The notes beneath the pieces are model-generated. The model worked only from the letters and a program-made list of their open reading frames with translations, made no database searches and had not been told where the DNA came from. Of a DNA stretch of 58,723 nucleotides, positions 11,641 to 55,742 are shown piece by piece. The DNA lies in IMG/VR virus record IMGVR_UViG_3300045955_000216, positions 1 to 58,723 of that record; one strand, written 5' to 3'. The translations under genes were made by a program, and so were the position numbers. Source of the stretch: a virus. The first letter of the stretch is position 1, and each line of letters begins with the position of its first letter.

Positions 11641-11672
11641 CACGTTGCCTCCTTCGCTCGTTAGTGGGCGGC

Positions 11673-20859: not shown

Positions 20860-23800
20860 TCATCGGCCGAGGCGCTCCCGGACCCCGTCGAGGAGGTCCC
20901 CGCGGGCGTCCCGCTGGGCCCGATGGACGATCGACTGGATCTCGCGCTTCTGCTCGTCGCGATCGAGCGCCCGGTAGGCCGGATCCTCGAGAAGGCCCAG
21001 GAGGTCCTCGCGGGCCTCGGCACCCCAGGTCCGGTGGTAGAGCCGGCGCTCCCGCTCGAGGAGCTCCACCTTCTCGCGGTCGACCGTGAGGCTCCGGGGC
21101 GGTGCGGCCGGGACGTAGCCGACCCGGGCGAGCTCCCGCTCGACGGCCTTGTCCGGCCGGGGGGCGTTCCGCCGGATCGGCGAGACCATCCGCTCGAGCG
21201 CCGTCTCGCCGCTCGTGAGGGCGCCGCCGAGAGCCCCGCGCTTCGCCGGGAGCTGGTTCCGGAGGCCGGGGAGCTGGGCCTGCATGGCCGCCACCGGCCC
21301 CTCGATCTCGCGCTCGGTGTCGTCCAGGCCGCGGGCGATCGACCCGAGGAGCCCGCCGGCCGGGATCATCCCGCGCGCCTGGCCCTCGAGCCACGACTCC
21401 CCGTACCGGAGCGGATCCGCGAGCATGTTGGAGAGCCCGAGGAGCCCGCCCAGGAAGGTCTTGTTCGTGATGTTCTGGGCCACGGCCCGGAGCATCGCGT
21501 CGGCCTTCTGTGCCGCCTTCTGCTCCTCACCGCCCCGGGCGAGCTCGACGATGTCGGCCGCCATCCCGAGGAGCCCGCCCACCGGCTCGAGCCGGTTGTA
21601 GGCGAAGGACCCGACGCCCGGCACCGTGACGCTGTAGGGCTGCCAGCCGGCCTCGCGCTTGGTGCGGAGCGTGTCCCGGTCCTCGCCGCCGCCGCCGCCG
21701 GTGACGTACCCCGCGGCCGCCAGGGCACCGGCGGCCAGCATGACCATCGACCCGAGGAACGGCCGCGCCAGGTCCTCGGCGAGCGCGCGCGGGACGCCCC
21801 CGAGCTCCCGCTGGCCCTGGGTGTACTCGCCCCGCCGGGCCCGCATCACGACCGGCACGAACCCGAGCGGCGTGCGCTCAAGCGTGGCCTTCATGATGTT
21901 CGCCGGCGTCCGGACAAACGGGATGACGTACCGGAGGGCCGGAATGGTCTCGCGGCCCCAGAGGACCCACTGGCCCATCTTCCCGAGCTTCTGCTGGAAC
22001 GTCCGGTAGTCCTGGGCGCCCTGGGCCCGGAGGAGCATCCCCGGCGTCGGGTCGGCGATCAGGGCCGACATCCGCCGCGCGAGGGCCTCGCCCTGGTGGC
22101 CCTCTTGGAGCGCGATCCGGAGCGCGCCGGCGTGAATCTCCGCGTCCCAGACCATCGCCTTGAAGGCCGCGTCCTCCGCGGAGAGCGCCCGGAGCGGGGC
22201 CCGGATGACGCGCCCCGCGCGGCCGCCGATCGCCGGCGGGCGCGCCTCGACGCGCCCCAGGTCGGCGCGCGTCTCGAGCTGCCAGGCCGCGACGGCCTTC
22301 CCGAGGGCCCGGCCGCTCGTGAGCGCCGACAGCATCCCCGCGACCTCGGCCATCCCCTCGCGGGCGAAGACCTCCCGCTGCCGGCCGGTGAGCTTCGCGA
22401 GGACCGCGTCGATCCCGCCGGCCAGCGTCCGCTCCGCGGTGTTCGACGCCATGAAGAGGGTGTTCCCGATCATGTTGGCCGCGTGCGATTGCGGGCCCGA
22501 GAGGATCGAGGACAACCAGGCCTCATAGAGCTTGTCGGACCAGCGGCGCTCCTGGGCCTTCCGGAGGAACGACGAGAGGCCGCGCGTGTCGCCGTCCGGC
22601 AGCGCGGCCGCGAGCTCGAGGACCTCGAGCGTCCGGGCCCGGTTCCGCGCGCCCGTGGCCTCGCCGCGCTCGCCCGTGACGGCGCCCTCCCCGCCGAAGA
22701 GCTCGAGGGCCGCCTGGAGCGCCTTCCCCTCAAGGGGCTTTCCGGCCTTGGCGCTCTTCGCCAGGATCCGGTGCGCGGCGAGCGCGCGCGCGATCTCCGT
22801 CGTCGCCCCTTCGACCTCGCCCTGGAGCGCGATGTGCGCGGCGGCCGCGCGCGCGAAGCGGTCGACCAGGGCGTCGGGGATCGGCTGGCCCTCGTGCTGG
22901 AGGGTCCGGTACTCCGCCTTGATCCCCGCGAGCCGCTCCGCCGAGGCCAGGAGAATGTTCCGCGCCTGCGTGATCTGCTCGGCGTTGAGCGTCCCGCCGA
23001 GGACCCGCCGGCGGATCCTGCCCTCGTCGAGGCCCGCCTCGAGGGACAGCCGCTCGATCTCCTCGAGCGTCATCGTGCCGCGGCGCCGCTCCATCATATG
23101 CCCGTGGTGCTGCTGGTGGAGCTGCGAGTACAGGTACTTCACGTCGACCGCCGTATCGAGCCGGTCGAGGTTCGTGCCGGTGTCGGTGTCCACGCCGGCC
23201 CGGCCGGTGGCCCGCACGACGAGGTCCGTGTCCGACGCGGTCGCGGTGGGCGCGGCGGCGCCGACGCTGCGCGCCGGCGTGGCCGCGGCGCGCGCGAGCC
23301 ACTTGGCGTGGGCGCCGCCGAAGAGGGCCTCCGATTTCGCGATGTCGGCCGCGCGCTCGGCGCGCTCGGCGGGCGTCAGGGTCTCCACCTTGCGGCCACG
23401 CCACTTCTCGTAGATTTTCCAGCCGGCGTCCTGCACGGCCCCGACGTCCTGGCCGACGAGCTGGAGCTCGGCGATCAAGCCCGTCGGGAGCTCGATGGCG
23501 ACGTGGATCGCGCGGTAGCCGCCGATCTTCGGCTTCTCGAGAAAGTTTTCGATGTCGACGACCGGAAACTCCCGGCCGACGGCCTCGAGGACCCGCGCGG
23601 CGTCCCCGGGGGCGTCGATCCAGACCCGGCCGCCTAGGTAGTCGACCCAGGCATCGCCCGGACGGGCCTGGAGCTTCTCGGTAATCCGGTGCTTGGCGTC
23701 GCTCTTGACCCTGGGCGGGTAGCGGTCCGGGAACGTCAGCCCCGGGGTATCGACGGCCAGCCGCCGGAGGCGCTGCTCGTACTGTGGCCGATCGTCCTCG

Positions 23801-26800
23801 GCGCGGGCCAGGAGGGTCGGGACGTCCGCCGTGTCCTGGTACGCCTCATAGGTCGGCTCGGACGGCAGCGGCGCGGTGTTCGGGCGCTCCGGCAAGGTGC
23901 GGAGGCGTGTGCGCCCTGGGGCGCGGACGACCTCGGCCGGGTCGAAATTTGCTATACTTGGGTCGATGGAGCCCACCGTGGTCAAGGTCTGGGAGGTCGG
24001 CCGCGAGGACGGGGGCGGATTTATCCGCACCGTCGAGCTCTCGAGCGGCTCGGTTCGCGGCGAGGTCTGGTCCGCCGCGGCCAAAGCCTGGATTCCGGCG
24101 CCCGGCATGGACGCGGGCCGGATCTTCCGCGCCTCTCGGCCCTCCGCCGAAGAGCTCGCCGCCGCCGGCATCCCCGCCTGACCCTCGAGGCTCTGCCCGA
24201 CCCGTATATCGCCCTGGGCCGCCATCCGCTCGCGGAGTCGCTCCTGGAGCGTGGCTTCATCGGCGGCGCCCCGCGCGCCTTCCCGGGACACCCCGCGCGA
24301 CGCGACGTACTCGCCGGTCGCCGGCTTCCCGAACCGGACCGCGTACACGCTGACGTGGCTGCCCGTCTGGAGGTCCTTGTCGGCGGCCTGGACGAGGAAG
24401 TTTAGCGTCCCGCCGACCGTCCCCGCGTTCCGGCCGGCGAGACCGGAACCCCGCCCGCTGCCCACGCGGAAGACGAGGTCCTCGCCCGGTTCCGCCTTCG
24501 GGTCGCCGAGGTTCTCGACGAACGTGCGATAGGCCCCCTGGGGTCGGAGCTCCTCGAAGAGGTTGATTCCGCGGAGCGCCTGGTCGAGCGGGATCGTCGA
24601 GAGGCGCCGCTCCGTGTACGCGCCGCCCTCGGGGAAGTAGTACCAGCCGCCCAGCTTGAAGCCGACCGGCGGCCGCGGATCCTCTCCGCCCCGCGGTTCC
24701 GCCGCCCCGACCCCGCCGAGGTCCGGCTCCCCCGCCGTGCGCGCCGCGAGGTCCGCCGGCGCCCCGAAGAGGTCGCCCTGGCCGGCGGCCCGCGTGTCGG
24801 CCTCGTCGCGCGCCTCGAAGTTGAAGAGGTTCCGCTCGCTCCGCTCCGACTCAAGGGGCGGCTTCGTCGACCCCTTCCGGATCGGGCCCGCCGACATCTC
24901 GCGCCGCTCGGTGCCGGGCATGACGTACTGGTCGCCGGCCTCGGTCTTCTCGACACGCGGCGCGGCCGCCCCTACGCCCTCGAGCTCCGGCTCCCCGGCG
25001 ACGCGGGCGGCGAGGTCGGCAGGCGGAACCGCCGTGGCCGCTCGTCCCCGAGGGACGTCAGGTGCGGCATCGCCCGCCGTAGCTCCCGCAGGACGACCGC
25101 CTGGTCCGCCTCGGAGAGCTTGGGGTAGCGCCTTGCGGAGGGCGCTGTACGTTTGTTCCCGGACCGCATGGCGTCCCTCCCCGGCCGCGAGGCGCGCGGC
25201 CCCCTGGTTGAGCACGTCGGCCACCGGGCCTTGGACGTGCTTCAAGCGATCGAAGAGCTCGAGCAGGACCGCGGCCTCCTGGCTGACGCCCTGGCTCCGG
25301 GCGACGTCAATCACGTTGCCCTCGGCCTGGAGCCGCTGCGCCGCGCGTGACTTGCTGACGGTCGAGAAGAGGCGCTTGTCCTGCGAGAGCCGATCGCGAA
25401 GGTCGGCGACCAGCTTGGCCTTCTCGACGACGGCCGCCTCTTGGCGCGTGTCAGTCCCGAAGAGCGTCTCCTCGGTGACCGCGCGGGTCGGCGCCGAGGC
25501 CGCCATCCCCGCGAGCTCGGCGACGTCCTTGTCCCGGAGCGGCCGGCGCTTCTCGAGGCGCTCGAGGGCCTGGACGAGCTTGAGCTGCGCGTCTGGATCC
25601 TGGACCCGCTCCCCGATCAGGACCGCCCGCGGCGTGGAGAGCTTCCCCGTCTGGACGCGCGCGAAGACGGGCGCCGTCAGGTTCCCGAGCGCGAGGCCTT
25701 CGCGGACCACCGACTCGCGCATCGGGACGCCCTGGGTGCGGAGCGTCTCGGCCGTAAGCCCGGTGTCGCGGAAGAACTTCGCCGCGTCGAAGGCGGTGCC
25801 CCGGCCCTCGGCGATGTTCATAAGCGCGCCGACCGCGCGCGCCTGCTCGGCCGTCTCGGCCTCGACCTCGAGGACGGCGATCGACGCCGGCGCGGACGGA
25901 TCCCCCGCGGCCCCGAGCTCGCGCGCCTTGTTGACGCGGTTGTGGCCGTTGAGGACCTTGAGGCGCTGGTCCGCGGGATCCCGCCAGACGGCGACGACGC
26001 CGGCGAGGTTGGGATCCCACCGCCGGACGCCGGTCAGGCTGCCGGTGCTGCCGCTCTTCTCCCGGTTGGAGACCTTGAACTGGAAGCGGTCTGGCTCGAG
26101 GTCCAGCTCGGCGAGCGGCACCTCGCGGACGCGGGTCGGCGCGGCCTCGGGGCCGGCCTCCACCCGGAGCTCGGCCTCGGTGGGGCCGATCATCCGCGCG
26201 GTGCCGGCCAGCCGGAGGCCCTCGCGGACCAGCGGACTGTCGGGATCCACGCCAAAGGCGCGGAGCTGTTGCGGGCCGAGGCCGTACTCCCGGAAGAACG
26301 CGGCCGCGTCCTGGGCGGAGGTCCCCGTCGTGGACGGGCGGTCCACCGCGAAGCCCTGCTCGGCGCTCGCCTTGGGTCGGCGGTCGCGCACGAGGTTGTC
26401 GACGACCCCGAGCGTCCGGGCGGTCTCGGCATTCGGGGCCTGGAGGAACCGGACCCGGATCTGCGGGACCCCCTGGGACTTCGCCAGGTTGAGCCGGTTG
26501 TGACCGTTGATGACGTACACCTGCCCGTCGGCCGGATCCCGCCAGACCAGGAGCCCGTTCCGGTCCCGCGCCGGGTCGTACCGCTGGCGGGGGTCGAACG
26601 TCCCGCTGGCGCCGCTCTCCGTCTCGAGGCCCGCCAGCTTGAACTGGAACCGGCCGGGGTCGGCCTTGACCGATCCGGTCGGGAGGAGCGCCTGGCCGGG
26701 CTCGAGCGGGATCTCCCGCGACGGGATCTCGGAAATCCCCTCCTGGGACGCCGGGGCGGGCCCAGGCGCGCGATCGGCCGGAGGGGCCGGTATCTCCCCC

Positions 26801-28710
26801 TCGGCGGCCTCGGCCTGGCGCGCCCGGATCGTCTCGAGGATCCGGGGCCCGCTGGCGGGTGGGGGCGTGACCTCCACCTGGCCGCCCTCGGGTGTCACGG
26901 GGGCGACCGCCGCGGCGGCCGTCTCGGCCTCCCCGGGGCGGGTCAGGACCGTTTGGACCTCGCGGCCAGCGTCGTCCTGGACCTGGACCTGGCTGGTTGG
27001 GTCGCCCGGGGTCGGCTTGGCGTCGACGCCGTACCCGAGGAGCCGCCCCGCCCGGCCAGCCCGGTACTCCTCGGCGACCCAGCGGTCGAGCATCCGGCCG
27101 GACAGCCCGGGCGGCGCCATCGCCTCGATGGCCGGCCGGCTGTAGTAGAGGGCGTTCCCGTTCGGGAGCTGGGCGACGCGGATCCGCTCGCCGCGCCGCT
27201 GGGCGCCCGGGCGAAAGTCGGCGTCCCACTCGAGCGGGACCTCGACCGCGGGCTTGTCGCCACGGGCCAGGGCGTTGAGCTGGGCCCGGACCGCCCGCGG
27301 GCTTTCCGGGAGCGTGCGGCGCTCGGCCTCGGCCTGGGCCGCTGCCTCGCGGGGGGCCGCCTGGGGCCCGCGGATGACGGCCCCACCGCCCGCGCCGAGA
27401 ATCCCGCCGATCGAGGCCGCCTCGAGGATCTCGCTCGACGGCGCCTGTTGGCCGGCCGCGGTCGCGCCGATGCCGGTCTGCATTCCTTCTTCGATCGCTT
27501 CGCCGGCGCCGCTCCGGAGGCCCCGCCGGACGAGCCTGCCCGTCCCGAGGATCGGGCTGAATCGTTGGGTGATGGTCAGGAGGAGCGCGTTCCCCACCGC
27601 CGCGCGGTTGCCGGCCGCGACCGCTTGCGTCGCGTCGCCGGTCTCGGCGAGGACGCGACTATACGTCTCGCCCGCGCCGGAGAGCGCCTGGCCGAGGCCT
27701 TCCACCGCGACGCCGGTGAGGCGCGCCAGGCGCGGCGCGATCTGCATGATCCGCGCGCTGACCGCGGCGGCGCCCATACCCGGGACCAGGAAGGCGGCCA
27801 GCGAGCCGATCCCCTGGAAGAGCTTGTCCGCATAGGTGGGATCCTTGACCCCGAGCGTGTCGGCGACCTCCGTCGCGGCCAGGCGGAAGTCCCGGAAGAG
27901 GTCCTCGGGGATCCCGACCTGACGCGCGAGAAGCTCGGCGCCGCCGGCCACACTCGCCACCGCCCCCGCGACGCCGGTCCCGACGCCCCGGCCGATCCGC
28001 TCGGCCGCGTTCATCGGTGGAGCCGGGCCTGGCTCCGGCCGGTCCGCCGCGACCCGCCGCGCGATGTCGGGGCTTGACTCCACGCCGGGGCCCACCTCCA
28101 CGCTCCCGCCCTGCCCGGACATCACGAGGGCCCGGGCGGCATCCGGCATGATCGCGCCCTGGGCGGCCGCGAGGCGGCGCCCCGTCGGGGTCCGGCCCGC
28201 CGCGTCCGGCTGGTCCAGGCCCGGGGTAACCTGGATCGGCCGCTCGCCGGCCAGGGGCGTCGTCACCGGGACGTCCGTGTTGCGCGCGACGGGCGGCGGG
28301 ACGGGCTGGCCGGTGCGCGTGTCCTTCCCGTCGACGATGAGGTTCGGATGGCCCGCCAGCTTGAACGTGCTCGGCCAGTGCCCCGTCGCGTCGGGGGCGG
28401 CGCCCGCGCGGTAGGCGGCGCGGTAGTCGTACTGGTGCGTGGGATCATCCGGATCCGGATGGAGGCCCTGCGCCTGGGCGTGCTTCGCGTACCAGGTGCG
28501 GAAGCCGGGGTCGTCGGGGCCGTCCTCGACGACCGTCCCGCCGGCGGAGACGGTGCCTTCCGCGCGGGCCCGCGGCGGCCGCTCGAGGCCGAAGAGTCGA
28601 TCGAGGTCGTCGACGCTCGGGCCCGACGCCGCGGCTGACGCGGCCGGGGTGCCGCGGGCGGCCGGCCCCGGCCCCCCGAAGAGCCGGTCCAGGTCTTCGA
28701 CCGTCGGCAC
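20860..28710 (-). CDS. Giant polyvalent ejection protein with ParB-like and RelA/SpoT-like domains, 2616 aa
   Basis: N-terminus carries two copies of VxDLDRLFG. Residues 60-120 hold a podoviral motif (YDYRAAYRAG, GHWPSTFK). About 230-470 is Gly/Ala-rich and membrane-like. Two DdrB-type ParB-superfamily domains follow (about 690-850 and 870-1010; VINGHNRLN and VLNGHNRVN). Near 1410 lies a small domain (VFRVGSGRG, SVYAVRFG) that could be ADP-ribosyltransferase-like. About 1610-1815 looks like a RelA/SpoT synthetase (VDYLGGRVWID, KPKIGGYRAIHVAI, AELQLV). The last 700 residues contain the polyvalent-protein pattern YEAWLSSILSGPQSHAANMI and hydrophobic segments. Phage polyvalent proteins enter the cell with DNA and act on the host. 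Acts between tail and coiled-coil ejection genes; the nested plus-strand gene at 23966 lies in a linker. Confidence 0.8.
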   Translation of the reverse strand: MPTVEDLDRLFGGPGPAARGTPAASAAASGPSVDDLDRLFGLERPPRARAEGTVSAGGTVVEDGPDDPGFRTWYAKHAQAQGLHPDPDDPTHQYDYRAAYRAGAAPDATGHWPSTFKLAGHPNLIVDGKDTRTGQPVPPPVARNTDVPVTTPLAGERPIQVTPGLDQPDAAGRTPTGRRLAAAQGAIMPDAARALVMSGQGGSVEVGPGVESSPDIARRVAADRPEPGPAPPMNAAERIGRGVGTGVAGAVASVAGGAELLARQVGIPEDLFRDFRLAATEVADTLGVKDPTYADKLFQGIGSLAAFLVPGMGAAAVSARIMQIAPRLARLTGVAVEGLGQALSGAGETYSRVLAETGDATQAVAAGNRAAVGNALLLTITQRFSPILGTGRLVRRGLRSGAGEAIEEGMQTGIGATAAGQQAPSSEILEAASIGGILGAGGGAVIRGPQAAPREAAAQAEAERRTLPESPRAVRAQLNALARGDKPAVEVPLEWDADFRPGAQRRGERIRVAQLPNGNALYYSRPAIEAMAPPGLSGRMLDRWVAEEYRAGRAGRLLGYGVDAKPTPGDPTSQVQVQDDAGREVQTVLTRPGEAETAAAAVAPVTPEGGQVEVTPPPASGPRILETIRARQAEAAEGEIPAPPADRAPGPAPASQEGISEIPSREIPLEPGQALLPTGSVKADPGRFQFKLAGLETESGASGTFDPRQRYDPARDRNGLLVWRDPADGQVYVINGHNRLNLAKSQGVPQIRVRFLQAPNAETARTLGVVDNLVRDRRPKASAEQGFAVDRPSTTGTSAQDAAAFFREYGLGPQQLRAFGVDPDSPLVREGLRLAGTARMIGPTEAELRVEAGPEAAPTRVREVPLAELDLEPDRFQFKVSNREKSGSTGSLTGVRRWDPNLAGVVAVWRDPADQRLKVLNGHNRVNKARELGAAGDPSAPASIAVLEVEAETAEQARAVGALMNIAEGRGTAFDAAKFFRDTGLTAETLRTQGVPMRESVVREGLALGNLTAPVFARVQTGKLSTPRAVLIGERVQDPDAQLKLVQALERLEKRRPLRDKDVAELAGMAASAPTRAVTEETLFGTDTRQEAAVVEKAKLVADLRDRLSQDKRLFSTVSKSRAAQRLQAEGNVIDVARSQGVSQEAAVLLELFDRLKHVQGPVADVLNQGAARLAAGEGRHAVREQTYSALRKALPQALRGGPGGRPAGATAGDAAPDVPRGRAATAVPPADLAARVAGEPELEGVGAAAPRVEKTEAGDQYVMPGTERREMSAGPIRKGSTKPPLESERSERNLFNFEARDEADTRAAGQGDLFGAPADLAARTAGEPDLGGVGAAEPRGGEDPRPPVGFKLGGWYYFPEGGAYTERRLSTIPLDQALRGINLFEELRPQGAYRTFVENLGDPKAEPGEDLVFRVGSGRGSGLAGRNAGTVGGTLNFLVQAADKDLQTGSHVSVYAVRFGKPATGEYVASRGVSREGARGAADEATLQERLRERMAAQGDIRVGQSLEGQAGMPAAASSSAEGREARKIRPASMPGAGIQALAAADQTSPRTEPLESSTVRINPPPSSRPTSQTLTTVGSIDPSIANFDPAEVVRAPGRTRLRTLPERPNTAPLPSEPTYEAYQDTADVPTLLARAEDDRPQYEQRLRRLAVDTPGLTFPDRYPPRVKSDAKHRITEKLQARPGDAWVDYLGGRVWIDAPGDAARVLEAVGREFPVVDIENFLEKPKIGGYRAIHVAIELPTGLIAELQLVGQDVGAVQDAGWKIYEKWRGRKVETLTPAERAERAADIAKSEALFGGAHAKWLARAAATPARSVGAAAPTATASDTDLVVRATGRAGVDTDTGTNLDRLDTAVDVKYLYSQLHQQHHGHMMERRRGTMTLEEIERLSLEAGLDEGRIRRRVLGGTLNAEQITQARNILLASAERLAGIKAEYRTLQHEGQPIPDALVDRFARAAAAHIALQGEVEGATTEIARALAAHRILAKSAKAGKPLEGKALQAALELFGGEGAVTGERGEATGARNRARTLEVLELAAALPDGDTRGLSSFLRKAQERRWSDKLYEAWLSSILSGPQSHAANMIGNTLFMASNTAERTLAGGIDAVLAKLTGRQREVFAREGMAEVAGMLSALTSGRALGKAVAAWQLETRADLGRVEARPPAIGGRAGRVIRAPLRALSAEDAAFKAMVWDAEIHAGALRIALQEGHQGEALARRMSALIADPTPGMLLRAQGAQDYRTFQQKLGKMGQWVLWGRETIPALRYVIPFVRTPANIMKATLERTPLGFVPVVMRARRGEYTQGQRELGGVPRALAEDLARPFLGSMVMLAAGALAAAGYVTGGGGGEDRDTLRTKREAGWQPYSVTVPGVGSFAYNRLEPVGGLLGMAADIVELARGGEEQKAAQKADAMLRAVAQNITNKTFLGGLLGLSNMLADPLRYGESWLEGQARGMIPAGGLLGSIARGLDDTEREIEGPVAAMQAQLPGLRNQLPAKRGALGGALTSGETALERMVSPIRRNAPRPDKAVERELARVGYVPAAPPRSLTVDREKVELLERERRLYHRTWGAEAREDLLGLLEDPAYRALDRDEQKREIQSIVHRAQRDARGDLLDGVRERLGR
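23950..23966 (+). promoter_or_regulatory. Extended -10 promoter of a leaderless transcript
   Basis: TGCTATACT (23950-23958) is followed after seven bases by ATG 23966, so RNA would begin at or next to the start codon. No good -35 is seen. It shares TGCTATA with P1 and P2. It lies antisense in the polyvalent gene. Confidence 0.5.
23966..24181 (+). CDS. Nested antisense small protein, 71 aa
   Basis: Encodes MEPTVVKVWEVGREDGGGFI, then RTVELSSGSVRGEVWSAAAK, AWIPAP and a C-terminal SAEELAAAG. It has normal amino-acid composition and mostly G/C third positions. The opposite strand here (polyvalent residues about 1510-1582) is low-complexity Pro/Ser/Ala with more A/T thirds. There is no ribosome-binding site but a -10 seven bases before ATG. 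It may be a small gene inserted into a linker, possibly an immunity-type partner of the adjoining domains; that is speculation. An accidental frame is the alternative. Confidence 0.5.
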   Translation: MEPTVVKVWEVGREDGGGFIRTVELSSGSVRGEVWSAAAKAWIPAPGMDAGRIFRASRPSAEELAAAGIPA

Positions 28711-38551: not shown

Positions 38552-39697
38552 TTACGAGATGTTGCTGCGGAAGGTCCGCACGGTGATGACACCGTTGTCC
38601 ACGCTGTTGAAGACCGCCTTCGTCACGTCGTAGATCGCGGAAATGGCGAAGCCGATCTTGTTGGCGTAGTCGAAGGACTGCTCCACCCACTGTGGGCGCT
38701 CGCCCCAGGCGAAGACGCCGGCCTGGCGGCCCAGGAAGAGGTTCTCGGAGCCGGCGAGGTTGCTGCCGGCGCCCCAGGTCGTCGCGAGCGCGGTCCGGGT
38801 CGAGCTCCGGATGACCACACCGTCCCAGATGCCCTCGGCGCCGGTGAAGAGGGGGTTCATCTTCCCCCGCTCCTGCGCCTCGCGCTGGGCCTGGGACCAC
38901 GCGGGATCCTTGAGCTTGAGGTCATGCAGCGAGTCCGGGGAGACGACGAGCAGGAAGTAGTCCCCGCCCTCGATCCGGACCGGGAAGATCTGCGGCGTCG
39001 CCTTGCGGGCGATGACCTTGACCCGCGAGATGAGGGCCAGGTCGAGGTAGTCGCCCGACTCGATCGTCGCCGTCGAGACCGCGTCCCCGCCGTAGGCCAC
39101 GCGGCCGGACGAGGGCGAGGTCGAGAGGGCGGTGAAAATCTTGTCGTCGATCTGGTCCGCCAGCCAGTCCTTGAGGAGCTGCTTCGCCACCTTGCGCTGC
39201 TCGAACGCCGTGCGGCGCTCGGACAGCCGGCCGGCGAGGCGGACACCGTTCCGGTACTGGTTGAGGGTGACGTCGTCGGAGTGGAACGTCATCGCCTCTT
39301 CGGAGCCTTCCAGCGTCGTGTCGCCGGTGACGCCGGCGCCGGTGAGCTGCCGCGCCAGGGTGAAGGTGATCTTCTCGCCGGGCTTCCCGTCGAGCTCTTC
39401 CTTGACCTGGATGATGGCGTTGACCTCCTTCTGGAGGTACGGCGCCATGAAGACGGCCTCGGGCAGTTCGAGCCAGATGTCGTCGGACCAGGCCTGGACG
39501 GCGATCGCGGCGCCGCCGGCCACGGTCGTGTCGGCCCCGCCCGAGATGGACAGGCCGAGGCGGAGGAGCCGCTGGGTCGGCGTCTCGAGGAGGCGTGGGG
39601 CCTCACCGGCCGCACGCAGGAGACGGGTCGGCGTCCAGAACAGCGTGACGAGCGCCGCGAGGACGCTCGCCCACAGGGTCCGGATGGTGGCGATCAT
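38552..39697 (-). CDS. Major capsid protein, N4-gp56 family, 381 aa
   Basis: WSDDIWLELPEAVFMAPYLQ, RQLTGAGVTGDTTLEGSEEA, VRLAGRLSERRTAFEQRK and LLKDWLADQIDDKIFTALS are typical of N4-gp56-type capsid proteins. GGAGGAG before ATG 39697 supports the long form, which adds about 50 residues including a hydrophobic segment (LWASVLAALVTLFW). That extension may be a scaffold-like or membrane-interacting arm. Next to scaffold and portal genes as expected. Confidence 0.85.
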   Translation of the reverse strand: MIATIRTLWASVLAALVTLFWTPTRLLRAAGEAPRLLETPTQRLLRLGLSISGGADTTVAGGAAIAVQAWSDDIWLELPEAVFMAPYLQKEVNAIIQVKEELDGKPGEKITFTLARQLTGAGVTGDTTLEGSEEAMTFHSDDVTLNQYRNGVRLAGRLSERRTAFEQRKVAKQLLKDWLADQIDDKIFTALSTSPSSGRVAYGGDAVSTATIESGDYLDLALISRVKVIARKATPQIFPVRIEGGDYFLLVVSPDSLHDLKLKDPAWSQAQREAQERGKMNPLFTGAEGIWDGVVIRSSTRTALATTWGAGSNLAGSENLFLGRQAGVFAWGERPQWVEQSFDYANKIGFAISAIYDVTKAVFNSVDNGVITVRTFRSNIS

Positions 39698-39716: not shown

Positions 39717-40634
39717 TCAGGCGCCCCCCAGGTACCATTGCCACACGTCCGGGCGGTCCTTCTTCAAGCGCGCCTTTTGGTCGTCGGTCATGGCGTGAAT
39801 CTGCGGGCGCGTGAGCCCGGTGCGAGCGGAGGTGGAACCGGGAAGAGCGCCGATCCCACGCGGCCGGTCGGCCGCGGCTACGACCTGTTGAACGGTCTCG
39901 CGGCGCCCGCGGGCTTCCCCACGGATCTCCGCGTCGGCTTCGCGTTCTTTCGCGAGGCGGCCCTGGGCGTACTCGTAGGCCGTCCGCGCGGGGTCTTCGG
40001 ACTGGTAGATGTGCTGGTAGAGCCACGGGTCCCGGGGGCGCCCGCTTTGCGCGTCCGGTCGGATGTCCGCCAGGACGCCGCTCCGGCGGAGGACGTCCCG
40101 GTAGTCCTTGTGGTCGCGCTCAAAGGCCGTCTGCGTGCGGGCCACCTTCTCGGCCACCAGGGCCGCATCGCGCGCCGCGAGCTCGCCCCGGACCCGTTGC
40201 TCGATGCGCTGCTCGAGGTCCGCGGCGATGTCGTTGAGGCTCTTGAAGCGGTTGGTGTCCTCGTAATTCGGCCGTTCCGGCTGACGCCGGGCTTCGGCTT
40301 CCCGGCGCGCCCGGGCGGCCTCCTGGTGGTACTCCTCCCGGAGCCGCTCGGATTCCTCGAACTTCCGCTGATACTCCTTCCGTCGGCTGCGCTCAGCATC
40401 GAGCGCCGCCTTCGGCACCATCGGGGCCCGCTTCTCCCCGTCCGGGGGGCGGGTCTCCGTCGCCGGGGGCGCGCCCTCGGCGGTCGTCGCGGCCGGCTCG
40501 CTGCCCTCGGCGCCCGGTGTCGGGGTCTCGGCGTCCGCCGGAACCTCGACCGGGACGTCCTGGAGCAAGTCCGCCGGGAGCTGGACCTCGAGGACCTCTT
40601 GATCCGGGTCGACCACTTGGGTCTCTGGTGCCAT
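39717..40634 (-). CDS. Capsid scaffolding protein, 305 aa
   Basis: An acidic disordered N-terminus, central coiled coil (about 80-125, KEYQRKFEESERLREEYHQE) and a basic C-terminus are the hallmarks of tailed-phage scaffolds. It lies directly upstream of the capsid gene and downstream of the portal. No protease motif seen. Confidence 0.75.
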   Translation of the reverse strand: MAPETQVVDPDQEVLEVQLPADLLQDVPVEVPADAETPTPGAEGSEPAATTAEGAPPATETRPPDGEKRAPMVPKAALDAERSRRKEYQRKFEESERLREEYHQEAARARREAEARRQPERPNYEDTNRFKSLNDIAADLEQRIEQRVRGELAARDAALVAEKVARTQTAFERDHKDYRDVLRRSGVLADIRPDAQSGRPRDPWLYQHIYQSEDPARTAYEYAQGRLAKEREADAEIRGEARGRRETVQQVVAAADRPRGIGALPGSTSARTGLTRPQIHAMTDDQKARLKKDRPDVWQWYLGGA

Positions 40635-40698
40635 CGCTGCCTACCTCCCTGTGCCGGGTCTCACGGGCCGGCGTCCGATGGGCCTTGGTAACGGGGGG

Positions 40699-40791
40699 GC
40701 CTCCCCGAAAAACGACACGCGCGCCGGAGAGCTCCTGGGAGCCCTCGGGCGCGCGTGGTTCGCGTCTGCCCCGGTCGGTCTCGGCGACCGG
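40699..40791 (-). ncRNA. Structured intergenic element, copy 1 (terminator plus second hairpin)
   Basis: Between portal and scaffold genes. Hairpin A: arms 40718-40729 and 40744-40755 (11 of 12 pairs), followed on the minus strand by a T-rich stretch, as in a rho-independent terminator. Hairpin B: CCGGTCG/CGACCGG (40771-40777, 40785-40791). Between them lies a conserved linker CGCGTCTGCCCCG (40761-40773) shared with copy 2 at 53681-53778. The rest of 40635-40891 shows no gene. Confidence 0.6.
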
Positions 40792-40891
40792 TGCTATCTC
40801 ATACGGGGACCTCGCGGGATCTCAACCGGGGACCGTTGTCGCATCGCTTCCTCTCTACCACACGTTTCCCGCGGCCTCGCGAGAACGGCCC

Positions 40892-42940
40892 TCACGGGGT
40901 CCGCATCCCGGCCTGGCGACGGGCCGTCGTGACGCCGTCCTTCGGGATCGGGAGCGCCCCCGGCTCGTAGGCGTTCGGCTGGCCCCGCTGGGTCCGCCCG
41001 GGGATCGGGGGCGGCCCGGCGGCCCCGGGCATCGCCGCCGCGGGCGGGGTGGCGACGGGGTTCCCGTCGGCGTCGATGAGGCCCTGCCGCTGCATGAGGG
41101 TCCGGATCCGGGCCAGGACCCGCTCCCGCTCCGGGATGTCCGAGAGCTCGACCACGAAGTCGACCAGGACCGGGGCCAGGGCCGGCGCGCGCTGGATCAG
41201 GTCCATGAGGGTCTGGGTCGCCTGCATCCGGGCGGTCGGGGTCGACGGCGAGTCGGCGATCATGACGTCGATCTTCACGTCGGGGATCCGGTTCGACGTG
41301 GTGATCGCGCCGCTCTCGGCGTCGACCTGGCGCTGGTTGAGGGTCACGAAGTCGGTGTCCGCCGCGCCGGTGTCCAGGCGGACCGTCCGCTCCGCGGTGT
41401 AGACCTGTTGGACGCGCTTCGCGAAGCGCCGGGCGATCTGCCGGCGGGACCGCTTGTAGTTGTCGAAGATGGCGGTCGCGATGATCTGCCCCTGTTGCTG
41501 CCGGCGCGCGATCGCGATGCCCGAGGCGTCGGCGTCCCGCTGCCCCATGAGGTCCGCGTTGACGCCGCTGATCTCCTTGATCTCCTGCTTCGCGACGGCC
41601 TGCATCTGCCAGACCCAGGGGGGCATCTGCGGCGGGGTGACCTGTTGCGGGACCGGGGCCTCGCGGCTCCGGAGCCAGTAGACGTGCCCGGCGCCCTGGC
41701 CGCTCTCGAGGCCGGACTCGTTCTCGAGGGTCCCGCGGTGGGCGAACCAGCGGATCGCGCCGAAGCGAGCGATGTTGTCGGCCATCGCGGAGCGGCGCTT
41801 GTTGACCTCCCGCTGGGGGTCCTTGAGGTTCCGGACGATGCCCAGGATCTCGTCGAGCTCGCGGTAGCAGACGAACGGGACGAAGGGGTAGTCCTGGGTG
41901 TCGTTCTCGAAGGGGTTCCCGTGCTCGAGCTCGATCCCGAGGGCCGGCAGGATGACGCTCATCTTGACCACGCGGCGCTGCCGGCGAATCACCCGGACGT
42001 CCTCGTCGCGCTGGGCCCAGGCCCGGGCGGCCTCGAGGGTGACGGGGTCGTCCGGGATCTCCTCGACGCGGTCCTCCCGGAGGTCCACGAGGAGGTGGAC
42101 CGTCTCCCACTCGCGGAACCAGGCTTCGACGATCCGGACCTCGTGGGCCGTCTCGTCGTAGAAGCTGATCGCGTCGAGGATGTCGCGCCGCCGGTAGTTA
42201 TCGAGCGGGTCGACGCCCTCGACGATCTGCTCGCGCACCTTGCCGGCGGCGACGGCGTAGGTCTCGACCGCCCGGCGAATATCCGTCTCGTGGTCCGGCC
42301 AGGCGGCCACCACGTCGTCGACCGGCACCATCCGATGCCAGAACTGCTCCCGGGCGTCGCTCCAGTCGTACCGCTCGCTGTAGGGATCGGCGAGCCACTC
42401 GCCCAGGCGGATCTTCCGGAGCTCGACCTCGCCGTGGATCGGGTCGCTGTCGTAGTTGATGCCGACCCGCCAGGTCCCCAGGCCCGTGACGACGCCGTCC
42501 TTGAAACCCTCCGAGAGGATCCACTCCCCGTCCTGGTTGTCCATCTCGCGCTTCATGAGGCGCCCCAGGAGGGTGACGTTCTCGAGGTCCTCGCGCCCCT
42601 CGGGGATCGGCTTGGCCTCGAGGCGCGCGGACCGCTCGTAGCCGGTCAGGACCTCGACGACCGGGCGGATCTCGTTGATCGTGAGGACCGTGCGCTCCTG
42701 GGCCTCGAGCTTCCGGCGGACGTCCGGATCCCACTGTTCGCCGATGACGAAGAGGTAGTCTTCGCCGGCCTGGCGGCGCCACCGCTGCCAGAGCGGGTGG
42801 GTCCAGTATTCGACGAACCGCTGCCGGAGCCGGTCCACGCGCGCCTGGGCCGCCGCCGGCTGGTCGGGCGACGCCGCGGCCCAATCGGGGTACCCGAGGA
42901 ACTTGCCAAGGGTCCGGGAGTGCAGCTCGCCGACGGCCAT
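40892..42940 (-). CDS. Portal protein, P22-like, 682 aa
   Basis: RFVEYWTHPLWQRWRRQAGE, YLFVIGEQWDP, RPVVEVLTGYERSARL, DGVVTGLGTWRVGINYD and WLADPYSERYDWSDAREQFW match P22-type portals. The C-terminal 150 residues are Pro/Gln-rich. Forms the dodecameric DNA gateway at one capsid vertex and docks terminase. Large for the family's core, as usual in this group. Confidence 0.88.
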   Translation of the reverse strand: MAVGELHSRTLGKFLGYPDWAAASPDQPAAAQARVDRLRQRFVEYWTHPLWQRWRRQAGEDYLFVIGEQWDPDVRRKLEAQERTVLTINEIRPVVEVLTGYERSARLEAKPIPEGREDLENVTLLGRLMKREMDNQDGEWILSEGFKDGVVTGLGTWRVGINYDSDPIHGEVELRKIRLGEWLADPYSERYDWSDAREQFWHRMVPVDDVVAAWPDHETDIRRAVETYAVAAGKVREQIVEGVDPLDNYRRRDILDAISFYDETAHEVRIVEAWFREWETVHLLVDLREDRVEEIPDDPVTLEAARAWAQRDEDVRVIRRQRRVVKMSVILPALGIELEHGNPFENDTQDYPFVPFVCYRELDEILGIVRNLKDPQREVNKRRSAMADNIARFGAIRWFAHRGTLENESGLESGQGAGHVYWLRSREAPVPQQVTPPQMPPWVWQMQAVAKQEIKEISGVNADLMGQRDADASGIAIARRQQQGQIIATAIFDNYKRSRRQIARRFAKRVQQVYTAERTVRLDTGAADTDFVTLNQRQVDAESGAITTSNRIPDVKIDVMIADSPSTPTARMQATQTLMDLIQRAPALAPVLVDFVVELSDIPERERVLARIRTLMQRQGLIDADGNPVATPPAAAMPGAAGPPPIPGRTQRGQPNAYEPGALPIPKDGVTTARRQAGMRTP

Positions 42941-51774: not shown

Positions 51775-53250
51775 TTACACCCCCATCCACGCGAGGTCCC
51801 GCCGGGCGGTGGGGCTCGGCAGGGTCGGGCGCGCGGGCTTGCGGTAGTAGTCCTCGACGGGGAAGCAGACGGACGCGAAGTAACAGGCCATGTGGCCGAC
51901 GTGGTCGTGGAGGCCCGAGGCGCGCTTGGCGGCCATCAGGGTCGGCGTGATCCGGCCGAGCGCGTCCTTCGGGTAGTGCCAGCCGCCGCGGAGCGCCCGG
52001 CGGAAGAGCTTGTCCTCGGGGTCGACCTGGAGGATCGGCCGGCCGCGGGACATCCGATTGAGGAGCGCCTTCAAGGCGTCGCGCCGGGCCGGCCAGGTGA
52101 TCGGCCCGTCCTCGAACATGGCGCGCGGGGCGTTCCGGCCGATCTGGGACGTCAGCCGCGTCTCGATGACCATGACCGCGGTGTGCTCGGCGTTCGATTG
52201 CTCGCGCTGCCGGCCCGCGGGGTCGCCCATGTCGCGGATGGTGCCCTCGAAGTGCCCGAGCCACTCCGACTCCCAGGGAAGGATCTGCTCGTCGATGAGC
52301 TGCTCGACGCCCTGGTTGACGCCCTGGAACGTCATGAGCTTGTTGACGTGGGCCAGCGGCGTGATCTGCCAGTAGCCGCACGTCGGGGTGAGCCCGAAGT
52401 CCCAGGCCCGCGCGATCGTGCCGTAGCGCAGGATCGGGAGCGGTTCCGCCGCGACGTGGGTCTGGTCGTTGTACTCCGGGATGACCGGCTCGCCCAGGAC
52501 GATCTGCCCGACCTGGCCCTCGACCAGGCGGGCCACCAGGTCGCCGCGGCCGGTCGCCTCGAGGGCCAGCCGGTTCTCCGCGCGCCGCTGGTCGGAGTAG
52601 TGGGCGTTCTCGCCCTTCGGGATCCGGAAGAGCCGGACCATCGGCCGCGTCCCGAGGGCCGGCATGGTGGCCCGGATCTTCGGCTCGAGCTCGAGCATCC
52701 GCTCGCCGACCTTGAGGGTCCAGTGGTCCTCGTCGGGCGGGTTGTAGGTAATCTGGATCCAGGCGTCGACGATGCCCGCCTGGCGGAGCGAGGTCGCGGC
52801 CACGCCGAAGACCTCGACGGGGATCCCGCCGGAAATGTCCGCGGCCGGGGCCGGCTCCTCGAGCCAGATGACGCCGGCGCCCATGCCTTGCAGCTTGTTG
52901 ACCTCGGCCATCCGGTCGAGCCCGAGGAAGCGGAGCTCGAGGAGTCCGTTGCCGACCAGGGCGCCCGTCTCGTGGCCCTGGCTATGGTCCCACTCGACGG
53001 CGAGCCCCTTGGCCTCAAGCTCGTGGAGCGTCTTGATCGCCGAGTCCCGGAGGTTGACCATCGTGTCGCGGATGACCACGCACTTGAGCGGGAGCGCCGC
53101 GCGGGGGATGTACCGCTGGGCCCGGTGGAGTAGGCGGTAGTAGCCGTGGGTCGTCTTGCCCTCGCCGCGGGGCCCCATGAGCATGACCACGAAGGCGGGC
53201 GACTCCATGAATTGCCAGCCCGTCCGCGAGGGCTGCATCCGGAAACTCAT
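51775..53250 (-). CDS. terL: Terminase large subunit, 491 aa
   Basis: ATG 53250 overlaps the small-subunit stop. Walker A is GPRGEGKT (26-33), Walker B VIWLEE (127-132, catalytic Glu), and the RNase H-like nuclease begins at RAWDFGLTPTCGYW (near 280) with its metal-binding Asp. Pumps DNA into the prohead and cuts it. Confidence 0.92.
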   Translation of the reverse strand: MSFRMQPSRTGWQFMESPAFVVMLMGPRGEGKTTHGYYRLLHRAQRYIPRAALPLKCVVIRDTMVNLRDSAIKTLHELEAKGLAVEWDHSQGHETGALVGNGLLELRFLGLDRMAEVNKLQGMGAGVIWLEEPAPAADISGGIPVEVFGVAATSLRQAGIVDAWIQITYNPPDEDHWTLKVGERMLELEPKIRATMPALGTRPMVRLFRIPKGENAHYSDQRRAENRLALEATGRGDLVARLVEGQVGQIVLGEPVIPEYNDQTHVAAEPLPILRYGTIARAWDFGLTPTCGYWQITPLAHVNKLMTFQGVNQGVEQLIDEQILPWESEWLGHFEGTIRDMGDPAGRQREQSNAEHTAVMVIETRLTSQIGRNAPRAMFEDGPITWPARRDALKALLNRMSRGRPILQVDPEDKLFRRALRGGWHYPKDALGRITPTLMAAKRASGLHDHVGHMACYFASVCFPVEDYYRKPARPTLPSPTARRDLAWMGV

Positions 53251-53678
53251 TCGGGCATCACCACCGCGACGTGGCCGTGCTCGTCCGGGGCGCCGACCGG
53301 GGCGGGGAGCTCCGCGTCCGGGGTCGCCGGATCCGTGCCGGGCGGGAAGACGTACATCGGCTGGAGCCCCTCGAGGTTGACCTTGACGGCCTGGGGCGGC
53401 CGGCCGAAGCCGTGGTCCATGAGGTCCCGGCGGGCCGCGGCCCGGGCGGCCCAGGGCGATCGCGCGTTGCGGAGCGTGTGGAGGGCGTGGTCGACGAGCT
53501 CCTGGCCGTCGGCGGTCTGACTGCGGATGTACTCCCCGAGGCCCTTCGCGCGGCCGCCGGGGTTGCCCGACTGCCCCGGGAGCCACCCCTTCCCCGTGAC
53601 GCCGCCGAGCTGGTAGCCCTCACGGGCCGCCGGCGGGGCCGGGGGGATCGGGTCGTGGATCTTCGGGCCCTTCGCCAT
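53247..53678 (-). CDS. Terminase small subunit-like protein, 143 aa
   Basis: KGWLPGQSGNPGGRAKGLGE is the DUF5681-type signature common in genes just before terL. A helical segment (LVDHALHTLRNARSPWAARA) and a Pro-rich C-terminus follow. ATGA coupling to terL supports the terminase role. Confidence 0.75.
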   Translation of the reverse strand: MAKGPKIHDPIPPAPPAAREGYQLGGVTGKGWLPGQSGNPGGRAKGLGEYIRSQTADGQELVDHALHTLRNARSPWAARAAARRDLMDHGFGRPPQAVKVNLEGLQPMYVFPPGTDPATPDAELPAPVGAPDEHGHVAVVMPE

Positions 53679-53680
53679 CC

Positions 53681-53778
53681 GCCTCCCCGAAACAGAAACG
53701 CCCGCCGTCCTCCGTAGAGAACGACGGGCGCGCGTGATACGCGTCTGCCCCGATGCCTTGACTCGTCGCCGTCGAGTC
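53681..53778 (-). ncRNA. Structured intergenic element, copy 2
   Basis: Hairpin A arms CGCCCGCCGT (53699-53708) and ACGACGGGCG (53721-53730), one mismatch, with T-rich minus-strand tail. The linker CGCGTCTGCCCCG (53740-53752 region) equals copy 1. Hairpin B is GACTCG/CGAGTC (53760-53765, 53773-53778). Stems differ from copy 1 yet pair. Located between 53783 and terS. Confidence 0.6.
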
Positions 53779-53782
53779 TACG

Positions 53783-54025
53783 CTAGGTTCTGCGCTCTCC
53801 CGCGAGAGGGAACGGCGTGACCCCGTCGGTGGTCTCATACGCGACCACTTGCCCGCCGCCACAGGTCCGACAGACGTAGCGCGTGCTCGTCTTGCGGTGG
53901 CCCTTGTCCGAGAAGCGGCCCTGATGGAGGCTCACCGTGATGCTCCCCGTCCAGTCGGCGGGCCCGAGTGGAAACCCGACGCGGTGACCGTGGAGCATCA
54001 TCTCGAGGACCAGCGGGCCTTTCAC
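53783..54025 (-). CDS. Small zinc-motif protein, 80 aa
   Basis: GTG 54025 overlaps the mini-membrane gene stop. Contains CRTC (near 51) with nearby His residues (GHRKTST, LHGHRVG). Last gene before the element at 53681. Confidence 0.5.
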   Translation of the reverse strand: MKGPLVLEMMLHGHRVGFPLGPADWTGSITVSLHQGRFSDKGHRKTSTRYVCRTCGGGQVVAYETTDGVTPFPLAGERRT

Positions 54026-54114: not shown

Positions 54115-54512
54115 TCGAGCCGCCCGAGCGCCTCGAGCTTCTCGGCCACCTTCGCCTCGACCATCGCCTTCTGCTCCTGGAGCGTGACGATCTCCGCGGT
54201 CAGGCGCGCGACGATCTGCCGGAGCTCGAGGACGCGCGCATCATGGTCCGCCTTCGCCTGGGCCAGCGCCGACCGGAGGGCCATCAGGGTCTCCGCCGAC
54301 CGGCGCCGCGAGTCCTCGAGCGCCGCCTCCGTCTGGGCTAGGAGGACCTGGCGCTCCTCGAGGCGCTCCGCCTCGATCGTCGCCGCGTCCTTCCGCTGCG
54401 GGGCCCGGATCTTCACCTTCCGGCGTGGGGCCCGGAGCCCCGCCGGCGGCGCCGGCGGGCTCGGACGCGACGAGGGGGGGGGCGGGGTCGGCTTCGCGGG
54501 ACGCGGACTCAT
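54111..54512 (-). CDS. Coiled-coil protein, 133 aa
   Basis: Proline-rich first 30 residues, a basic patch (RAPRRKVKIRAPQRK) and a long helix (about 55-130, EERQVLLAQTEAALEDSRRR). ATG 54512 lies inside the 3' end of the neighbouring frame, which overlaps it by 272 bp. The coiled coil has normal composition, so this frame is taken as real here. Confidence 0.6.
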   Translation of the reverse strand: MSPRPAKPTPPPPSSRPSPPAPPAGLRAPRRKVKIRAPQRKDAATIEAERLEERQVLLAQTEAALEDSRRRSAETLMALRSALAQAKADHDARVLELRQIVARLTAEIVTLQEQKAMVEAKVAEKLEALGRLE

Positions 54513-54882
54513 ACGGGACCTCCCCCCGGCCCTCGCAGACCGGGCACGCGGGACGACACTCGAGGCCACGGGGGCCGGGCGGGGTAAGGAACCCGGCCCC
54601 CCGGCAGCGCGGACACCGCTGGGCTTCGCCCAGGCGGAAGCGGACCTCGCGCAGGACCAGGCCCCGGTCGGGCTTCAACCACTCGGCCCAGACACAGTCC
54701 GGCTCCCAGAGCCGGCGCCGCAGGAAGTCGACGGCCTCGGCGATCTGCGCGGTCCGGTACTTCCAGCCATACCAGCTCCGGGCGGCCCGCGGCGGTTCGG
54801 GCGGGAACGGCCGGACATCGTCGAGCGCCTTGGTGAGGACCGCGTGCGTGAGGATCCGCCACGGCTCCCACTCGTCGGCCAC
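54241..54882 (-). CDS. Zinc-finger (DnaJ-like) protein, up to 213 aa
   Basis: GTG 54882 abuts the upstream stop. Residues 1-85 are protein-like (WEPWRILTHAVLTKALDDVR, AVDFLRRRLWEPDCVWAEWL). CPRCRGAG and CPVCEGRGEVPYE give a CxxCxGxG pair, as in DnaJ zinc fingers. The last 85 residues are Gly/Pro/Ala-rich and overlap the coiled-coil gene out of frame. Confidence 0.6.
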   Translation of the reverse strand: MADEWEPWRILTHAVLTKALDDVRPFPPEPPRAARSWYGWKYRTAQIAEAVDFLRRRLWEPDCVWAEWLKPDRGLVLREVRFRLGEAQRCPRCRGAGFLTPPGPRGLECRPACPVCEGRGEVPYESASREADPAPPLVASEPAGAAGGAPGPTPEGEDPGPAAEGRGDDRGGAPRGAPGPPSPDGGGARGLAAPVGGDPDGPPVGAGPGEGGP

Positions 54883-55428
54883 TCACCGGCCCAGCCAGCC
54901 CACGCCAGGCACGATGAGATGCGCGGCCCGCTCCGGGAGCTGCCACGTCGGGATCCAGCCGATCGAGGTCGGCGTCGGCCAGACGAGCGCCTGGTCCCCG
55001 GACGCGAACCCGATCCGCGTCACGCCGGCGCCTTCCTCGGTCTGCCCGCCCCTCGTGATCGACTCGATCCGCTGGCCGCCGAGCTTCTCGTTCATCTCCT
55101 GCATCACCGCCGAGCCGTCGCCCCGGTTGTACCGGCGGCGATGGACGCCCGCCCCCGGCGTCACGATGAGGCGGCGCCGGTCGCCGAAGACCAGGCCCCA
55201 CCGGAGCGTCCAGCGCGGGCCCCCGCTGACGGCCCGCACATGCTCGGGCACCTCGACAGCGCAGACGCCGACGACGTCCCGCGTGTCGGCGAGCTCGAGC
55301 TCGGTGCCGAAGCGCGTGCCGTCGACCAGGACGTCCGTCTCGACCCGCCGGATCGTCTGCCCCCGGAGGTAGTCCTCCAGCGTGAAGCGGCCCCCGGCGC
55401 GGCGGTCCTCGGTCGTGGGGGCGCTCAT
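54883..55428 (-). CDS. Beta-rich hypothetical protein, 181 aa
   Basis: ATG 55428 overlaps the upstream stop. Beta strands (RRVETDVLVDGTRFGTELEL, RWTLRWGLVFGDRRRLIVTP) and AAHLIVPGVGWLGR at the end. No family recognised. Pairs of Arg and Trp suggest surface interaction. Confidence 0.55.
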   Translation of the reverse strand: MSAPTTEDRRAGGRFTLEDYLRGQTIRRVETDVLVDGTRFGTELELADTRDVVGVCAVEVPEHVRAVSGGPRWTLRWGLVFGDRRRLIVTPGAGVHRRRYNRGDGSAVMQEMNEKLGGQRIESITRGGQTEEGAGVTRIGFASGDQALVWPTPTSIGWIPTWQLPERAAHLIVPGVGWLGR

Positions 55429-55742
55429 GCGTCCCGCCACTGTTCGACGAAGACGTCGTCCGAGAAGCACTCGATCGGGTCGTCATCCCGTAGATGTGTG
55501 AGTAGGCGCGTGGTGCCGGGGCCGATGGTATAGATCGCGTCCGGCGAGAAATAGATCAGGTCTTGCCCCAGGGTGACCACCGAGCGCGGGGCCGCGGCGC
55601 CCACGAACCGGACCCCCTCGAAGGTGCCGAGCTCGCCGCGGAGGAGCGGGGCGACTGGCGCCGCCGCCTCGAGGACGGCCGGCAGCGCCTTCGCCCCGAC
55701 GAGGGCCCCGAGCGCGGCGCGGAAGAACCCGCGGCGGTTCAC
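55425..55742 (-). CDS. Tat-signal-like protein, 105 aa
   Basis: GTG 55742 by GTGA overlap. N-terminus MNRRGFFRAALGALVGAKAL has the twin-arginine motif RRxFFR followed by a hydrophobic stretch and AAA near 28. The mature part is short (SVVTLGQDLIYFSPDAIYTI). Its end, ECFSDDVFVEQWRDA, resembles the mini-ORF at 56283. Export by Tat is inferred. Confidence 0.6.
   Translation of the reverse strand: MNRRGFFRAALGALVGAKALPAVLEAAAPVAPLLRGELGTFEGVRFVGAAAPRSVVTLGQDLIYFSPDAIYTIGPGTTRLLTHLRDDDPIECFSDDVFVEQWRDA

What the first reader, a model, noticed from the sequence alone, without database searches (positions are those of the whole stretch)
40699..40791. Repeated structured element with covarying hairpins
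Two intergenic regions (40699-40791, 53681-53778) share a linker (CGCGTCTGCCCCG, and GGGCGCGCGTG beside it) and CCTCCCCGAAA, while both flanking hairpins have different sequences that still pair. Conserved architecture with changed stems suggests a selected RNA structure rather than two chance terminators.
Basis: seen in the sequence. Interest (0 to 1): 0.75.

Follow-up and report, generated by a model that had tools for sequence, protein, structure and literature searches.

The report
Phage late-operon RNA terminator switch
Two of this phage's late gene operons (DNA packaging and capsid building) begin with the same short RNA leader, which looks able to fold either into a stop signal for transcription or into an alternative hairpin that breaks it; relatives keep this arrangement with different letters, so it is probably an on/off switch for virion production, not yet tested.

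Summary
In detail: 24 of 27 aligned bases are shared and the hairpins differ but still pair. The relevant strand is minus. Element 1 precedes the scaffold and capsid genes; element 2 abuts the terminase-small start codon. Each is an intrinsic terminator, and the "linker" plus the terminator's first bases fold into a second, overlapping hairpin (GGGC-AGA-CGCG-loop-CGCG-C-GCCC).

Relatives carry equivalents. G001 has one before TerS, homologous by sequence. G002 has three, with its own linker GGGCCGACTC. Further contigs have promoter, overlapping hairpins, terminator and scaffold gene in the same gap. Ten of ten elements fold into one shape. If that hairpin forms, it usually moves the terminator base from 0-3 to 2-6 nt from the U-tract. 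Where the terminator abuts the next start signal, expression seems to need readthrough.

Best reading: a terminator/antiterminator switch coordinating late operons, probably helped by a trans factor that I did not find. Weak points: covariance models do not find held-out copies, G001 lacks U-tracts, and the 5' hairpin is not conserved. No Rfam match. New variant of a known kind.

The parts
40798..40825 (-). sigma70-like promoter of element 1: TTGAGA - 16 nt - TATGAG, downstream of the portal gene
   Evidence: score reached by 0.8% of shuffles and 0.5% of same-genome windows
40768..40794 (-). 5' hairpin of element 1, near the predicted transcript start; not conserved in relatives
   Evidence: absent from G001 and G002 copies
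40716..40757 (-). terminator stem-loop of element 1 (20-nt arms, 90% complementary); its 5' arm overlaps the antiterminator
40708..40712 (-). U-tract (UUUUU) after terminator 1
40692..40707 (-). small hairpin CGGGGAGGCCCCCCCG between terminator 1 and the scaffold gene; counterpart conserved in relatives
39717..40634 (-). scaffold-like gene, first gene after element 1 (role inferred from position before the capsid gene; no family match)
38552..39697 (-). major capsid protein (Phage_capsid_3 / N4-gp56 type)
40892..42940 (-). P22-like portal protein, upstream of element 1
53755..53783 (-). 5' hairpin of element 2; not conserved in G001 or G002
53698..53731 (-). terminator stem-loop of element 2
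53690..53698 (-). U-rich tract (UUUCUGUUU) after terminator 2
53682..53688 (-). GGGGAGG, Shine-Dalgarno of the terminase small subunit gene, immediately after the U-rich tract
   Evidence: sequence
53247..53678 (-). terminase small subunit-like gene (weak DUF5681 match), first gene after element 2
51775..53586 (-). terminase large subunit

Best explanation
Each copy is the 5' leader of a late operon (terminase; scaffold/capsid) carrying a transcription-termination switch read from the minus strand. RNA polymerase, at least at the scaffold copy starting from a sigma70-like promoter just upstream, transcribes a short leader. In the default fold a GC-rich hairpin plus U-tract stops transcription before the operon. 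The linker (GGGC-purine loop-inner stem-loop) can instead pair with the first 4-6 nt of the terminator 5' arm (GCCC or GGCC). That strips the bottom pairs of the terminator, so its stem ends several nt before the U-tract and should stop working. A factor (phage or host protein, or modified RNA polymerase) that favours the antiterminator hairpin late in infection would switch on the late operons together. Shown: repeated element, its positions, terminator anatomy, overlapping hairpin predicted in all ten copies, promoters at many scaffold-type copies. Inferred: that termination happens, that the switch is regulated, and that a trans factor exists.
For: Shuffle-significant minus-strand structure. 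Two copies at the starts of the two packaging/morphogenesis operons. Homologous copy before TerS in G001 (z 6.5, 0 of 500 shuffles) with the stem rewritten but paired. G002 has exactly two copies of its own linker GGGCCGACTCT plus a third with GGGCCGACTC before small membrane/lipoprotein genes, each followed by a different terminator. Within W and within G002 what is conserved is the linker-hairpin strands, and what varies is mainly the apical loop (AAC/TAT; TTA/TGTT/GTAGA). Loop length varies 3 to 5, which fits an RNA hairpin better than a fixed-spacing DNA operator. All ten copies give the same overlapping hairpin as unconstrained MFE; combined p 5e-4, or 3e-3 using one per genome. The overlapping shape occurs at 8 of 9 late-operon terminators found in the scan but 4 of 62 other terminator-like sites in the same contigs. 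Antiterminator formation moves the residual stem base from 0-3 nt to 2-6 nt from the U-tract in 8 of 10 (12 nt in G001), and energies lie within 0.6-7.5 kcal/mol in 8 of 10. Promoters TTGACA-18-TAACAT (G015), TTGACA-19-TATAGT (G002 third copy), TTGACT-17-TGTAAG/A (G018, L022) and TTGAGA-16-TATGAG (W1) lie upstream of the terminators. In W2, the G002 third copy and L023 the U-tract abuts or nearly abuts the Shine-Dalgarno sequence, leaving no room for a promoter in between.
Against: Covariance models built from one subgroup do not detect the others, so cross-clade homology rests on position and shape. Per-element folding p values are weak (0.02-0.19). The shape criteria were set after seeing the elements. 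G001 copies lack a U-tract. The TerS-type copies (W2, G1t, G2t) have no recognisable sigma70 promoter upstream. In W1 the residual stem calculation shows no loss of contact with the U-tract. No antiterminator gene was recognised among the proteins scanned. Closely related contigs L112-L114, L118 and L111 have no terminator in this gap.
Confidence: 0.5

Rival explanations
1. Processive antitermination site: the linker hairpin is a recruitment site (put-, nut- or dfn-like) for a factor or RNA polymerase itself, which then ignores this and later terminators. The overlap with the terminator arm is incidental.
For: Linker sequence is conserved within each genome (W twice, G002 three times) but differs between genomes, as expected of a site co-evolving with its own factor. 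Promoter-leader-hairpin-terminator order matches lambda pR'-tR', HK022 put and LoaP/dfn leaders.
Against: All ten copies overlap the terminator base by 4 or more nt, which a pure recruitment site would not need. No Q-, N- or NusG-type gene was recognised in the proteins scanned.
Confidence: 0.25
2. Plain intrinsic terminators that insulate adjacent late operons, with downstream genes served by leaky readthrough or by uncharacterised promoters. The shared linker is a recent copy or gene-conversion tract.
For: Intrinsic terminators near capsid genes are common, for example in Pam5, PBC5 and Skulduggery. GC-rich sequence easily forms alternative hairpins.
Against: Recent copying does not explain G002, where stems and loops have diverged while GGGCCGACTC stayed, nor the homologous linker in G001. 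Strong promoters lie before, not after, the terminators. W2 and the G002 third copy leave no room for a downstream promoter.
Confidence: 0.17
3. DNA operator: the linker is an interrupted palindrome bound by a dimeric repressor or activator just downstream of the promoter.
For: GGGC-N3-CGCG-N5-CGCG-N1-GCCC is palindromic and sits 10-38 nt after the -10 of several promoters.
Against: Half-site spacing changes by 1-2 bp among copies of the same genome (3, 4 and 5 nt in G002), and the palindrome always overlaps a terminator.
Confidence: 0.06
4. 5'-end or intergenic stem-loop that stabilises or processes abundant late mRNA (RNase site), unrelated to termination.
For: G001 keeps the stem but not the U-tract. 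Hairpins lie before highly expressed capsid genes.
Against: U-tracts follow the stem in most copies and relatives.
Confidence: 0.08

Closest known systems
Protein-dependent antiterminator RNAs (BglG/SacY/LicT RAT and related attenuators)
   Same: Short asymmetric hairpin whose 3' strand is the beginning of the terminator 5' arm; mutually exclusive with the terminator.
   Different: No RAT sequence match and no BglG-type protein recognised; sits in phage late operons. RAT details are from my own knowledge, not tested here with a model.
Lambdoid late control pR'-tR' with Q
   Same: Promoter, short leader and intrinsic terminator ahead of the late genes; readthrough needed for late expression.
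   Different: Conserved feature is a leader hairpin, not a recognised Q-binding DNA element; two or three separate late operons carry it; no Q homologue recognised.
HK022 put RNA (PMC9378689)
   Same: cis RNA near the start of phage operons, two copies per genome sharing sequence.
   Different: put is about 70 nt with two long stem-loops downstream of early promoters, acts without overlapping a terminator, and is described for early genes.
LoaP / dfn leader hairpin (PMC12691694)
   Same: Small leader hairpin between promoter and terminator that recruits an antitermination factor.
   Different: dfn hairpin is UNCG-type; loops here are AACCA, UAUCA, GACA, UUA and others, and overlap the terminator.
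ANTAR target (EutV) leaders
   Same: Hairpin overlapping the terminator arm.
   Different: ANTAR targets need paired hexaloop hairpins with conserved loop bases (own knowledge); loops here are 3-6 nt without them.

Membership tests
Rfam families (release 15) | Covariance-model match at gathering score | tested here: not met
   one search gave only chance-level hits (E about 1 or worse)
Intrinsic terminator | GC-rich hairpin directly followed by a U-tract | tested here: met
   W1 and W2; most relatives; not in G001
Terminator/antiterminator attenuator | Alternative hairpin sharing bases with the terminator 5' arm | tested here: met
   prediction only:
Terminator/antiterminator attenuator | Measured termination relieved by a signal | not testable with these tools
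   needs transcription assays
BglG/LicT RAT | BglG-type RNA-binding protein encoded with the operon | tested here: inconclusive
   none in proteins scanned, but not all ORFs were scanned and the factor could be host-encoded
Lambda Q-type late antitermination | Promoter-proximal terminator ahead of late genes | tested here: met
   scaffold-type copies; TerS-type copies lack a recognisable promoter
Lambda Q-type late antitermination | Q-family protein | tested here: inconclusive
   no PHROG/Pfam match among about 40 proteins
HK022 put | About 70-nt RNA of two long stem-loops acting without overlap with a terminator | tested here: not met
   elements overlap terminators in 10 of 10; 5' hairpin absent in relatives
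LoaP/dfn | UNCG-type hairpin | tested here: not met
   loop sequences versus description
ANTAR target | Tandem hexaloop hairpins with conserved loop A and G | tested here: not met
   loops 3-6 nt, variable

The most novel reading that the evidence does not exclude
A new class of phage RNA switch: a leader hairpin with a genome-specific recognition strand, read by an unknown phage- or RNA polymerase-linked factor, that unzips the base of the terminator at every late operon and so turns on packaging, capsid and possibly lysis operons together in a lineage of environmental P22/N4-capsid-type phages.
Probability: 0.3. Interest if true: 0.75.

Novelty: new variant of a known kind. Interest (0 to 1): 0.55.

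Why it matters
How late genes are turned on is known for few model phages. If right, this gives a compact, testable RNA switch that co-ordinates separate late operons in an uncultured phage lineage, and a bait (the linker hairpin) for finding the missing antitermination factor. It also shows that strands conserved within a genome but rewritten between genomes can mark a regulatory RNA that current covariance-model libraries miss.

Tried and rejected
Exact linker pattern in viral contigs: one hit, in an unrelated coding region, L003. G002 linker pattern: only G002 itself. Megablast against phages: nothing. MCP scan of GTDB contigs: one distant relative, L183, the same contig as L023, in a Thermodesulfovibrionales MAG; Nitrospirota-wide search gave only distant capsid matches. 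CM R1 (5 sequences) and R2 (3 sequences) found no held-out or extra copies; the best extra hits that I inspected lie in coding sequence. No third copy in the window. MAFFT alignments of all ten hairpins are not structural, so ten-copy pair types were counted on a hand alignment, which is fitted to the structure. Rejected: fixed-spacing DNA operator; chance terminators; plain promoter within the linker (no -10/-35 in the conserved stretch).

Full report
Observation. The window is the whole held virus record of 58,723 bases, 72% GC. The stated strings are present at the stated places; the joined 27-base pattern occurs exactly twice, against none in 100 shuffles. The inverted repeats differ between copies but pair. 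On the minus strand both regions fold far better than shuffles, z -4.8 and -4.4; on the plus strand less so. Local alignment of the copies has z 9.8.

Setting. The neighbouring genes run on the minus strand. Element 1 lies between the P22-like portal gene and the scaffold-like/major capsid genes; element 2 lies directly before a DUF5681-type terminase small subunit gene followed by the large subunit. So the two copies stand at the heads of the two packaging/morphogenesis operons. In element 2 the U-rich tract runs straight into GGGGAGG and the start codon, so there is no room for a promoter between terminator and gene.

Anatomy, minus strand 5' to 3'. A copy-specific 5' hairpin; the linker CGGGGCAGACGCG-N3-CACGCGCGCCC; a terminator stem that starts inside the linker; a U-tract (UUUUU; UUUCUGUUU); then CGGGGAGG. 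The linker itself can fold as GGGC-AGA-CGCG-(AACCA or UAUCA)-CGCG-C-GCCC, and its last bases are the first bases of the terminator. In element 2 the terminator 3' arm no longer pairs with the linker's second CGCG, yet those letters are unchanged, as expected if the linker hairpin itself is kept.

Relatives. Viral contigs were found by MCP scans. G001 (MCP 84% identical over the best segment) has a homologous copy before TerS: CAGGGCGGGACGCATTGACGCGCGCCCAGTCCCGGGAGGGGCTGGGCGCGCG (alignment z 6.5). The stem is rewritten and perfectly paired, but no U-tract follows. G002 (MCP 71%) has its own linker: GGGCCGACTCT occurs exactly twice in 52.8 kb, before scaffold and before TerS, and a third copy, GGGCCGACTC, precedes a small membrane-protein and a lipoprotein gene, probably lysis functions. 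Each has a different terminator. Within W and within G002 the conserved letters are those of the linker hairpin strands and the 5' internal loop; the apical loop differs in sequence (W) or in length, 3, 4 and 5 nt (G002). L022, G018 (L120), G019 (L122) and G015 (L117) have in the same gap a hairpin of the same shape overlapping a terminator.

Tests. Folding 30 nt upstream plus the first 6 nt of the terminator arm gave the same hairpin as MFE in 10 of 10; single p values are weak, combined 5e-4 (all) or 3e-3 (one per genome). Among 71 terminator-like sites in 13 contigs, the overlapping shape was found at 8 of 9 late-operon sites and 4 of 62 others; the criteria were chosen after seeing the elements. 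With the antiterminator formed, the residual stem ends 2-6 nt (G001: 12) instead of 0-3 nt from the U-tract in 8 of 10, 9 counting G001; W1 is the exception; the energy difference is 0.6-7.5 kcal/mol in 8 of 10 and larger in W1 and G1t. On a hand alignment three of seven core pairs show three pair types and two more show two; on a MAFFT alignment of five copies the covariation score is reached by 8 of 500 shuffles. Models from subgroups failed to find held-out copies: common descent of the linker hairpin beyond W/G001, and perhaps G002, is not proven.

Promoters. A sigma70-like promoter lies upstream of the terminator in W1 (TTGAGA-16-TATGAG), two G002 copies, G015, G018, L022, L023 and G003, each reached by 0.5-2.3% of same-genome windows; G019 is weaker (4.2%). 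TerS-type copies W2, G1t and G2t have none. The order promoter, leader, terminator, operon means that the operon is expressed from that promoter only by readthrough.

Interpretation. I consider a terminator/antiterminator switch for co-ordinated late expression most likely (0.5), a processive antitermination site next (0.25). A plain terminator pair does not explain the conserved linker strands. A DNA operator is disfavoured by the changing spacing. The trans factor is unidentified: no Q, N, NusG-like or BglG-like protein was recognised among the proteins scanned, but not every ORF was scanned.

Comparison. The mechanism works like RAT-type attenuators and, in operon logic, like lambda pR'-tR'; it is not put-like or dfn-like in structure, and there is no Rfam match. 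The literature searches in the held library found no description of such an element; most subscription papers are not in that library.

Noticed in passing
window 40680-40707 (-) and gaps before scaffold in G001, G002, L112-L114, L120, L122: A second conserved hairpin just upstream of the scaffold gene, CGGG(G)-[UC]GCCA-CCCCG followed by ANCAAGGC; could be a translational operator for scaffold autoregulation (speculation from P22).
   Followed up: partly
G013 (L190-L193): minus strand near 19991, 28998, 55191; G016: 6672 and 11282: A sister clade without the terminator shares its own late-operon motif (TGCGACA...CCCTCAGTAGAAGG; three copies in G013, two related copies in G016), so repeated late-operon cis elements seem general in this phage group.
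   Followed up: partly
window 53783-54025 (-): 80-aa CxxC protein directly upstream of element 2 has a homologue at the same place in G002 (36% over 42 aa); candidate regulator, no Pfam match.
   Followed up: partly
window 54241-54882 and 54883-55470 (-): Proteins upstream of the terminase operon conserved in G001 (the second also in G002); the first has a weak, below-cutoff zinc-ribbon match; possible regulators.
   Followed up: partly
window 15417-16448 (+), 9848-11691 (-): Tyrosine integrase, PD-(D/E)XK exonuclease and RecT-like genes suggest a temperate phage.
   Followed up: no
window 20860-28710 (-): 2616-aa open frame, conserved in G001 at 56% over its C-terminal part, without any Pfam match.
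   Followed up: no
window 40796-40834: Direct repeat on the minus strand, GGTCCCCGTATGAGAT / GGTCCCCGGTTGAGAT, 23 nt apart, covers the -10 and -35 of the element 1 promoter; may be an activator site or chance.
   Followed up: no
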